Shown here one piece after another: positions 56,623 through 59,559 of a stretch of 64,000 bases of DNA. Positions within the stretch are counted from its first letter, which is position 1. Every line of letters begins with the position of its first letter. Made by a program: the position numbers and the translations under genes. Source of the DNA: Micrococcales bacterium KH10 (GTDB lineage: Bacteria; Actinomycetota; Actinomycetes; Actinomycetales; Cellulomonadaceae); the NCBI GenBank assembly GCA_900188465.1, contig FZPE01000003.1:124001-188000 (forward strand), given 5' to 3'. Below the pieces are notes generated by a model. The model ran no database searches. It saw only the letters and a list, made by a program, of their open reading frames with translations, and had not been told where the DNA came from.

Positions 56623-56699
<77 letters not shown>

Positions 56700-56867
56700 T
56701 GGCCTTATTCACGGCTGGTTTTTGCCCCATCCGTGTTCGGTCCGCTCGCAAGTGTAGCCATGGACTTGCCTCAAGTGCGAATCGGCACCCGCAGCAGGGT
56801 CGTGTACCGACTTGTGAAAAGATGTTGGTATAGTTTCTGGTCGAACCCTTCACGACGAGGGGATCAC

Positions 56868-56938
56868 GCGGATGTAGCTCAATGGTAGAGCCTCAGTCTT
56901 CCAAACTGATTACGCGGGTTCGATTCCCGTCATCCGCT
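56868..56938 (+). tRNA. tRNA-Gly (anticodon UCC)
   Basis: The cloverleaf has acceptor GCGGATG/CATCCGC, a D arm GCTCAATGGTAGAGC, anticodon loop CTTCCAA (anticodon TCC), and T arm GCGGGTTCGATTCCCGT. The discriminator is T and CCA is encoded at 56939-56941. A TATAGT box lies at 56829-56834, about 34 bases upstream. Confidence 0.95.
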
Positions 56939-57103
56939 CCAGTTTCCATGCTTGTCAAGGCGCGCTGCGCCATGACCCGTTCCGTCGCCTGCGATTGTTC
57001 CCCTCGCCTGCTCCCCTCGTTCTAGGTGCACCATCGAAAATCCCTGCGAAACGAGTCGGGCAACGCTCAGGGATGTCGAAGCAACTCGCGCAATAATTGC
57101 CCC

Positions 57104-57619: not shown

Positions 57620-57648
57620 CAGACAATTCGGCCCACTGCGGCTATGAT
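57620..57648 (+). promoter_or_regulatory. Candidate promoter of the cys leader and cysK
   Basis: CAGACA (57620-57625) and TATGAT (57643-57648) are 17 bases apart and match the -35 and -10 consensus at 4 of 6 and 5 of 6 positions. Transcription would start near 57655, about 60 bases before the leader peptide gene. Confidence 0.5.
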
Positions 57649-57716
57649 GAATACGGCGGTCAGCAGGAACGCTGTTACCGCCCTAGTTTCATGCCGACAA
57701 CACCAGGAGATTCATC

Positions 57717-57776
57717 GTGCGCACGCAGCCAGCAATGCTTTGCTGCCGCGCCGTGATGTGTTGTTGTAGCTGTTGA
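57717..57776 (+). CDS. Cysteine-rich leader peptide upstream of cysK
   Basis: A 19-codon frame starts at GTG 57717, with AGGAG 7 bases upstream, and stops at TGA 57774-57776. It encodes MRTQPAMLCCRAVMCCCSC, with six cysteines, five of them from residue 10 on and four in the last five codons. It is too short for a normal gene and ends 164 bases before cysK. Cys-rich leader peptides of this kind precede sulfur and cysteine genes in mycobacteria and related actinomycetes, where ribosome stalling on Cys codons relieves attenuation when cysteine is low. Function here is inferred from content and position. Confidence 0.8.
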   Translation: MRTQPAMLCCRAVMCCCSC

Positions 57777-57940
57777 TTCCAACAATCCACCGCGCCCTTG
57801 CCGATCCACGGGTGATCGCTCTCTATCTGGGTGCCCCGCCTCATCGACGCTAAGCCGTGTGCGCCAGCCCACGTCGTATCCATCAGCGCACAGTTCCATC
57901 TCACCCAACCCACACCACGAATGAAGGAGAAACGAGCATC

Positions 57941-58876
57941 ATGGCTCAGATCTACAACGACGCGACCGAACTGATTGGCCGCACTCCCCTGGTGCGACTG
58001 AACCGCATCGCAGAAGGAGCGAAGGCCACCGTGTTGGCCAAGCTCGAGTTCTACAACCCCGCAAACTCAGTCAAGGACCGGATCGGCGTTTCCATCGTCG
58101 ACGCTGCTGAGCAGGCAGGCGCACTCGGCCCAGGTGGCACCATCGTGGAAGGCACTTCAGGAAACACTGGAATTGCGCTGGCTTGGGTTGGTGCCGCACG
58201 TGGTTACAACGTTGTGATCACCATGCCGGAGTCAATGTCCAAGGAACGTCGCGCCTTGCTGCGCGCACTCGGCGCCGAGCTGATTCTGACCCCGGCGGCC
58301 GAAGGCATGAAGGGTGCGGTGGCGGCTGCGGAGCGTGTCGCCGCGGAGCGTCCAGGCGCCATCCTGGCAAGCCAGTTCGCAAACCCTGCCAACCCAGACA
58401 TTCACCGTCGTACCACGGGTGAGGAAATCTGGAACGACACCGACGGCAACGTCGACATCATCGTTTCCGGTATCGGTACCGGCGGAACGATCACCGGTGT
58501 CGGTCAAGCGCTGAAGGAGCGTAAGCCGGACCTTAAGCTCATCGCTGTCGAGCCCGCTGAATCCCCGCTGCTGAGCGAGGGCCAGGCCGGCCCGCACAAG
58601 ATTCAGGGCATCGGAGCGAACTTCGTGCCAGAGGTGCTCGACACCGACATCTATGACGAGGTCATCGCCGTTCCATCCCAGTTGGCGATTGACACCGCTC
58701 GTCAAACCTCGGCCAGCGAGGGTCTGTTGGTCGGAATCTCCTCTGGTGCCGCCATCAACGCCGCATTGCAGGTGGCCGCTCGTGACGAGAACGCGGGCAA
58801 GACCATCGTGGTGATCGTCCCCGACTTCGGCGAGCGCTACCTGTCGACCCCACTGTTCGAGGGTCTGGCAGACTGA
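57941..58876 (+). CDS. cysK: Cysteine synthase A (O-acetylserine sulfhydrylase)
   Basis: CysK makes cysteine from O-acetylserine and sulfide with PLP. This 311-residue protein has the PLP lysine Lys45 in [11 protein letters not shown], the substrate loop [12 protein letters not shown], the phosphate-binding [10 protein letters not shown], and SSGAA near the C-terminus. It starts at ATG 57941 with AAGGAG upstream. It is followed by cysE, which makes its substrate. The Cys-rich leader probably controls it. A hairpin follows the gene. Confidence 0.96.
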
Positions 58877-58883
58877 TCGATCA

Positions 58884-58919
58884 GCGTCGGTGGGCCCGCA
58901 GTACCGGACCCACCGACGC
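58884..58919 (+). terminator. Hairpin between cysK and cysE
   Basis: GCGTCGGTGGG (58884-58894) and CCCACCGACGC (58909-58919) form an 11-base perfect stem. AATTCTCC follows. It may terminate or reduce transcription into cysE, so cysE may be made at a lower level than cysK. Confidence 0.7.
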
Positions 58920-58965
58920 CAATTCTCCCATGCTGACCAAGCCGCACCGCATCGGAAGGAATGCC

Positions 58966-59559
58966 ATGTCACGACGCATCTCCTTGGCCACACTCATGCG
59001 CGAGGACATTCGAGCTGTTCGTCGTGGTGACCCCGCCGCCCGCACAGGTTTCGAGATCGTACTGACCTACCCTGGACTGCACGCAGTGTGGGGCTATCGC
59101 TTGGCGCACGCTGTTTGGCGCCAGCCAGGCGGAAAACTCGCGGGACGAGTGCTCTCGCACATCACTCGGGCTCTGACCGGTATCGAGATCCACCCCGGTG
59201 CCACCATCGGTCGACGGTTGTTCATTGACCACGGCATGGGTGTCGTCATTGGCGAGACGGCTGTCGTCGGAGATGACGTGGTACTTTTCCACGGCACCAC
59301 GTTGGGTGGCCGCTCAATGTCCAAGGGCAAGAGGCACCCCACAGTCGGCGATAACGTCGTCATCGGTGCCGGGGCCAAGGTGCTCGGCCCCATCTGGATC
59401 GGATCCGGCGCCCAGATCGGCGCCAACGCCGTAGTCGTCAAAGACGTGCCTGCCAATATGGTGGCGGTCGGTGTTCCCGCTCAGGTGCGGCCGCGCCGCA
59501 AGACCGGCGCCGAGGACCGATTGACCGATGCGGCCCTGCTGGTCGAGTACGTGATCTGA
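58966..59559 (+). CDS. cysE: Serine O-acetyltransferase
   Basis: CysE acetylates serine, the first step of cysteine synthesis. This 197-residue protein has a helical N-terminal part and the left-handed beta-helix of hexapeptide repeats: [32 protein letters not shown] and [17 protein letters not shown]. Catalytic His lies in [11 protein letters not shown]. It is shorter than the E. coli enzyme (273), as in other actinomycetes. I chose the ATG at 58966, with GGAAGGA upstream; the frame is open to 58930. The C-terminal tail does not end in Ile-rich Asp-Gly-Ile but in VEYVI, and Ile is the residue usually inserted into CysK. Confidence 0.95.

What the first reader, a model, noticed from the sequence alone, without database searches (positions are those of the whole stretch)
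57717..57776. Cysteine-rich 19-residue leader peptide ahead of cysK
A frame with a good ribosome binding site encodes a peptide with six cysteines, four in its last five codons, 164 bases before cysK. TTGTTG within the Cys codons can pair with CAACAA just after the stop, so ribosome position could change folding. Cys-codon leader peptides are known in mycobacteria; the extent of the mechanism in this lineage is not known to me.
Basis: partly seen in the sequence, partly recalled or inferred. Interest (0 to 1): 0.75.

Follow-up and report, generated by a model that had tools for sequence, protein, structure and literature searches.

The report
Cysteine-codon leader peptide before cysK
A tiny gene ending in a run of cysteine codons sits just before the cysteine-making gene cysK in almost all relatives examined, and probably lets the cell sense cysteine shortage by stalling ribosomes; most relatives also carry an undescribed RNA hairpin that starts inside the tiny gene's stop codon.

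Summary
In detail: 57717-57776 (+) is a 19-codon ORF (VRTQPAMLCCRAVMCCCSC*) with a good Shine-Dalgarno site, 164 nt before cysK (cysK-cysE operon). It is not chance. In 124 cysK loci of the same family, 88 have a short ORF with at least 3 Cys in its last 8 codons in the 400 nt upstream, against 0 on the antisense strand and about 0.45 in shuffles; relaxed criteria raise this to 117. Both testable congeners have it, in the same place. It is best read as a cysteine-sensing leader peptide (ribosome-mediated attenuator), a kind known from mycobacteria, Propionibacterium acnes and Bifidobacterium.

New here: in most relatives the ORF ends in an almost invariant UGU-CNN-UAG and its stop codon opens a conserved, covarying hairpin (CUGUC-NN-UA-GAGCGYY...RRCGCUC), reported as absent from the mycobacterial leaders and absent from Rfam. 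It has no U-tract, and modelling gives no support for sequestration of the cysK ribosome-binding site, so the output step is open. The window's own genus lacks this hairpin. Cysteine response was not testable here.

The parts
57643..57648 (+). candidate -10 element TATGAT of the leader promoter (weak -35 CAGACA at 57620-57625)
   Evidence: scan (9 of 12 matches); TATGAT/TATCAT also found upstream of the ORF in the two congeners. Predicted only; would give a 5' UTR of roughly 60 nt, so not leaderless.
57695..57703 (+). CGACAACAC, can pair with the Cys-codon run GUGUUGUUG (57758-57766); competes with the downstream CAACAA
   Evidence: part of the predicted MFE fold; the leader as a whole does not fold better than shuffles (z 0.28); conservation weak
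57705..57710 (+). Shine-Dalgarno AGGAGA of the leader ORF
   Evidence: AGGAG(G) at 6-8 nt from the start in all three congeneric loci, and an SD in 108 of 117 family leaders
57717..57776 (+). leader ORF VRTQPAMLCCRAVMCCCSC* (GTG start, TGA stop), Cys run near the end
   Evidence: positional and Cys-run conservation
57761..57785 (+). local inverted repeats at the stop: TTGTTG/CAACAA, or TGTTG-ATTC-CAACA (57771-57784)
   Evidence: sequence; centroid fold; not conserved in congeners, z +1.13 for the local fold
57777..57940 (+). untranslated spacer, C-rich and G-poor (39% C, 21% G); possible Rho-loading region, untested
   Evidence: composition; no intrinsic-terminator-like site on the + strand
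57924..57929 (+). Shine-Dalgarno AAGGAG of cysK
57941..58876 (+). cysK, cysteine synthase A (311 aa, no cysteine residue)
   Evidence: TIGR01139 444.5 bits; 0 Cys
58966..59559 (+). cysE-like serine O-acetyltransferase (about 197 aa from ATG 58966, no cysteine), probable second gene of the operon
   Evidence: ORF, named by resemblance (hexapeptide-repeat acyltransferase sequence; no family search run); Cys count

Best explanation
The ORF is a cysteine-sensing leader peptide that controls the cysK-cysE operon by ribosome-mediated attenuation. Shown: a translatable ORF with SD, its Cys run next to the stop, and conservation of that layout upstream of cysK across the family; in most relatives a conserved, covarying hairpin that starts in the stop codon. 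Inferred: when Cys-tRNA is plentiful the ribosome runs through the Cys codons and leaves at the stop, and the RNA just downstream folds or is exposed so that cysK expression is kept low; when Cys-tRNA is scarce the ribosome waits on the Cys codons, covers the start of that RNA and lets cysK be expressed. In the relatives a ribosome with the invariant last UGU in its A site would cover the first five, most conserved pairs of the hairpin (a geometric inference from known footprint size). Whether the output is early transcription termination (Rho-dependent or an unusual hairpin) or translation of cysK is not settled. The window's genus keeps the ORF but not the canonical hairpin, so its downstream RNA step must differ in detail.
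For: ORF with at least 3 Cys in the last 8 codons in 88 of 124 family cysK upstream regions; 0 antisense, 0.45 in shuffles, 0 further upstream. Exactly one sense codon separates the last Cys from the stop in 114 of 117 leaders. SD in 108 of 117. Hairpin: in a set anchored without using stem positions 5-9, 93% of cells paired and covariation 0.292 against 0.147 +/- 0.015 in shuffles (0 of 500) and at most 0.130 when slid. The pattern of the element lies at cysK in 19 of 21 family hits, the other two inside coding genes. cysK and cysE lack cysteine entirely (about 3.7 expected for the pair; 152 of 163 cysK proteins have none), fitting enzymes that must be made during cysteine shortage. Precedent: Cys leader peptides in PMC1262725 and cysteine-responsive polycysteine sORFs in mycobacteria, cited in PMC9094748 and PMC13236596.
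Against: No expression, ribosome-profiling or cysteine-response data. In the window no U-tract terminator, no conserved anti-terminator and no unusual folding energy. SD-sequestration modelling gives no effect across the family. Only three loci of the genus are available, and their post-stop sequences differ.
Confidence: 0.82

Rival explanations
1. Translational attenuation as proposed for mycobacteria: the stalled ribosome frees the cysK ribosome-binding site from a sequestering structure.
For: It is the mechanism given for the mycobacterial polycysteine sORFs (Canestrari et al. 2020, abstract recalled from memory; described as translation attenuation in PMC13236596).
Against: Over 117 leaders the mean probability that the cysK SD is unpaired is 0.43 naked, 0.45 with a stalled ribosome and 0.43 with the leader shuffled. 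The conserved hairpin lies well upstream of the SD.
Confidence: 0.25
2. Rho-dependent transcription attenuation: ribosome release at the stop exposes a C-rich spacer that loads Rho; a stalled ribosome or the stop-proximal hairpin changes access.
For: Spacers are C-rich and T-poor (46% C, 29% G, 10% T in relatives; 39% C, 21% G in the window); only 2 of 83 have a T-run. The same idea was offered for mycobacteria in PMC1262725.
Against: Composition is a weak predictor of Rho sites; no conserved rut-like motif found; gives no reason for the conserved hairpin.
Confidence: 0.35
3. Transcription attenuation by the stop-abutting hairpin acting as terminator or pause signal, with direct occlusion by the ribosome stalled on the last UGU and no anti-terminator.
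For: The stem begins at the G of UAG, so that the five most conserved pairs lie under a ribosome stalled on the last UGU; strong covariation; one low-GC relative (L216) has TTTTTCTT right after the stem.
Against: No U-tract in nearly all others. The hairpin is missing in the window's genus and in genus g7.
Confidence: 0.3
4. Chance ORF: GC-rich intergenic DNA with TGY repeats.
For: Short ORFs with Cys codons do occur at low frequency (one other in the window).
Against: 88 of 124 against 0.45 expected, with 0 on the opposite strand and 0 further upstream.
Confidence: 0.01

Closest known systems
Mycobacterial polycysteine short ORFs (Ms5788A and Ms4527A Cys-rich leader peptides; Canestrari et al. 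2020)
   Same: short ORF with a Cys run near its stop, directly upstream of a cysteine-biosynthesis operon; expected cysteine response
   Different: here translation starts from an SD with a predicted 5' UTR rather than leaderless; the peptide does not match the NCBIfam models; relatives carry a stop-abutting hairpin; no support for RBS sequestration
[quoted passage not shown] acnes and of cbs in B. longum (PMC1262725)
   Same: runs of Cys codons near the stop of a leader ORF, no U-tract terminator
   Different: [quoted passage not shown] here a covarying hairpin is conserved in most relatives, and the target is cysK
Ribosome-mediated attenuators of the trp/ilv type in Actinobacteria
   Same: regulatory codons of the end product in a leader peptide
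   Different: no terminator with U-tract and no anti-terminator found
T-box leaders
   Same: amino-acid-responsive leader RNA
   Different: no Rfam match; sensing by translated Cys codons instead of tRNA binding

Membership tests
Cys-codon leader peptide (ribosome-mediated attenuator) in Actinobacteria | short translatable ORF with start, SD and Cys run near the stop | tested here: met
Cys-codon leader peptide (ribosome-mediated attenuator) in Actinobacteria | conserved position upstream of a cysteine-biosynthesis gene | tested here: met
Cys-codon leader peptide (ribosome-mediated attenuator) in Actinobacteria | expression of the downstream gene depends on cysteine supply and on the Cys codons | not testable with these tools
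   needs reporter or ribosome profiling
Mycobacterial polycysteine leaderless sORFs | leaderless start codon | tested here: not met
   SD 6 nt before GTG and candidate -10 about 70 nt upstream; transcription start not measured
Mycobacterial polycysteine leaderless sORFs | sequestration of the downstream RBS relieved by stalling | tested here: inconclusive
   no effect in ensemble folding; folding alone cannot exclude it
NCBIfam Ms5788A / Ms4527A Cys-rich leader peptide families | match to the profile | tested here: not met
   no match for the window peptide or for four leader peptides of its family and order
Classical transcription attenuator (trp type) | intrinsic terminator with U-tract between leader ORF and gene | tested here: not met
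   none on the + strand in the window; T-run in 2 of 83 relatives
Classical transcription attenuator (trp type) | mutually exclusive anti-terminator | tested here: inconclusive
   alternative pairings of the Cys run exist in the window (57695-57703 or 57780-57785) but are not clearly conserved
T-box riboswitch | Rfam T-box match | tested here: not met

The most novel reading that the evidence does not exclude
In Cellulomonadaceae-type actinobacteria and relatives, the cysK leader is a distinct attenuator class: the nearly invariant UGU-CNN-UAG places a ribosome stalled on the last Cys codon directly over the base of a hairpin that starts inside the stop codon, so stalling itself switches the RNA with no anti-terminator, no U-tract and no RBS sequestration. 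The invariance of the flanking C's and of UGU over UGC points to a further, unknown contact.
Probability: 0.35. Interest if true: 0.62.

Novelty: new variant of a known kind. Interest (0 to 1): 0.5.

Why it matters
It extends cysteine-sensing leader peptides to a broad group of actinobacteria, at cysK, and gives a conserved, covarying RNA element where the 2005 survey found Cys leader peptides in mycobacteria but no conserved hairpins, leaving the mode of regulation unknown. That makes the downstream step directly testable by point mutations. It also gives annotators a signature (UGU-CNN-UAG plus hairpin) to find unannotated regulatory ORFs.

Tried and rejected
SD sequestration of cysK by the leader: no effect in ensemble folding of 117 leaders. 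Intrinsic termination: no U-tracts. Pairing of the invariant CUGUC with a downstream GACAG: present in only 8 of 83. Free MAFFT alignment of the whole element misaligned the 3' arms; replaced by an alignment with collapsed loops anchored on a unique GCTC. Rfam: nothing but tRNAs. Poly-Cys ORFs before other Cys genes in the window's genus: none before the PF01507 (CysH/CysD-type) genes (one Cys-rich ORF in L240 lies inside longer ORFs) or before cbs. Pattern search for Cys runs in the own genome: no enrichment over the reversed pattern. The two element matches away from cysK are in coding genes. A cysK tree could not place the genus firmly (support 16), so loss versus absence of the hairpin stays open.

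Full report
Observation. The ORF at 57717-57776 reads VRTQPAMLCCRAVMCCCSC*: 19 codons, six Cys, four in the last five codons, AGGAGA six nt before a GTG start, 164 nt from stop to the cysK ATG at 57941. cysK is cysteine synthase A by NCBIfam; a serine-acetyltransferase-like ORF follows.

Is it chance? I took cysK loci from 59 relatives, 248 genomes of the order and 150 of the family, plus named genomes, and cut upstream regions. In 124 family loci, 88 have an ORF of 8-45 codons with at least three Cys in its last eight codons within 400 nt of cysK. The antisense strand gives 0, dinucleotide shuffles 0.45 on average, and the stretch from -800 to -415 gives 0. Allowing two Cys brings in nearly all the rest (117 leaders used later). 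Both congeners with a cysK locus have it (MRSIRATLSYRALPCCCCPSSR*, VRTQMAGTCLTARACCRCC*). An SD with good spacing precedes 108 of 117 ORFs, and many have a promoter-like sequence about 75 nt further up, so these are mostly SD-led leaders and not leaderless ones.

What else is conserved. The peptide sequence upstream of the Cys run drifts freely, but the nucleotides at its end do not. The last Cys codon is UGU in 114 of 117 leaders, although other Cys codons are 197 UGC to 140 UGU; it is followed by exactly one sense codon, starting with C, in nearly all; the stop is UAG in 101 of 117, while cysK itself stops with UGA in 50 of 52. Directly from the G of UAG a stem begins: GAGCGYY...RRCGCUC, with a loop of very different lengths. 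To avoid choosing the 3' arm by its complementarity I used only leaders with a single GCTC downstream and collapsed the loops (an artificial linker, for counting only). On 40 such sequences 93% of cells pair, with 37 changed on both sides; covariation is 0.292 against 0.147 +/- 0.015 in shuffles and at most 0.130 when the partner is slid. The first four pairs are fixed by the anchor and say nothing; the signal is in pairs 5 to 9. Cells are not independent events, but C-G to U-A and U-A to C-G changes occur in different genera. A swap test agrees (65 of 83 own helices score 8 or more, against 38% with other leaders' downstream DNA). Bowdeniella (L072) keeps an otherwise invariant pair as A-U. 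The core pattern occurs at cysK in 19 of 21 family hits; it is common in families f1, f9 and part of f13, and near background elsewhere in the phylum. No Rfam family matches.

The window itself. Its genus keeps ORF, SD, Cys run and position but not the canonical hairpin. One congener looks like a decayed form (CTGTC-CC-TCA-AGC-CGCTGACC). Neither is clearly kept in the congeners, and the folds are no better than shuffles (z +1.13 and +0.28). With three loci I cannot say what does the switching there.

Mechanism. That the Cys run sets ribosome position by Cys-tRNA supply follows from the layout, from the cysteine gene downstream, from cysteine-free products (0 Cys in cysK and cysE against about 3.7 expected; 152 of 163 cysK proteins have none), and from the mycobacterial precedent. 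The output step is open. RBS sequestration gets no support from ensemble folding; a classical terminator is absent; the spacer is C-rich and G-poor, as Rho sites can be. In the relatives a ribosome with the last UGU in its A site would, by its usual footprint, cover just the five most conserved base pairs of the stem; this is an inference.

Known or new. Cys leader peptides were predicted in Mycobacterium, P. acnes and B. longum in 2005, with no conserved terminator hairpin and mode of regulation unknown (PMC1262725); mycobacterial ones were shown to be cysteine-responsive (Canestrari et al. 2020, not held; cited in PMC9094748 and PMC13236596) and have NCBIfam models that this peptide does not match. 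The window ORF is a new member of that kind; the family-wide UGU-CNN-UAG plus stop-abutting hairpin is a new variant as far as the held papers and Rfam show.

Noticed in passing
L269 (upstream of a cysK/cbs paralog in genome G008), about 365 nt before the end of the stretch: A 10-codon, apparently leaderless ORF VLAPLSCCCR* (CTCTCCTGTTGCTGTCGCTGACC, TACAGT just upstream of GTG) close before a cbs-like gene, like the mycobacterial leaderless type; absent from the ten other cbs upstream regions looked at.
   Followed up: partly
L069, L070, L102 (cysK loci of other actinobacteria): A different leader ORF with a conserved peptide body (FTRRRVxDFGR...C.CC) ends 67-94 nt before cysK and weakly resembles NCBIfam Ms5788A (best E 4.9e-05, below its cut-off).
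   Followed up: partly
genus g7 loci L139-L141, L146, L195, L203, L210, L212, L213, L224: Leader ends CTGTCGCTGACGACC with UGA and no GAGCG stem; GUCG-CUGA-CGAC could be a small hairpin over the stop. A conserved GTCGACAGAAGAGGAA precedes cysK.
   Followed up: no
83 non-redundant leaders: The invariant CUGUC just before the stop has no complementary GACAG downstream in most leaders and is not explained by Cys coding.
   Followed up: partly
57941-59559: cysK and the following cysE-like gene encode no cysteine at all; 152 of 163 related cysK proteins also have none.
   Followed up: yes
56623-56941: tRNA-Pro(TGG) on the minus strand and tRNA-Gly(TCC) on the plus strand upstream of the cysK region; tRNA genes also lie near cysK in most relatives checked.
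   Followed up: no
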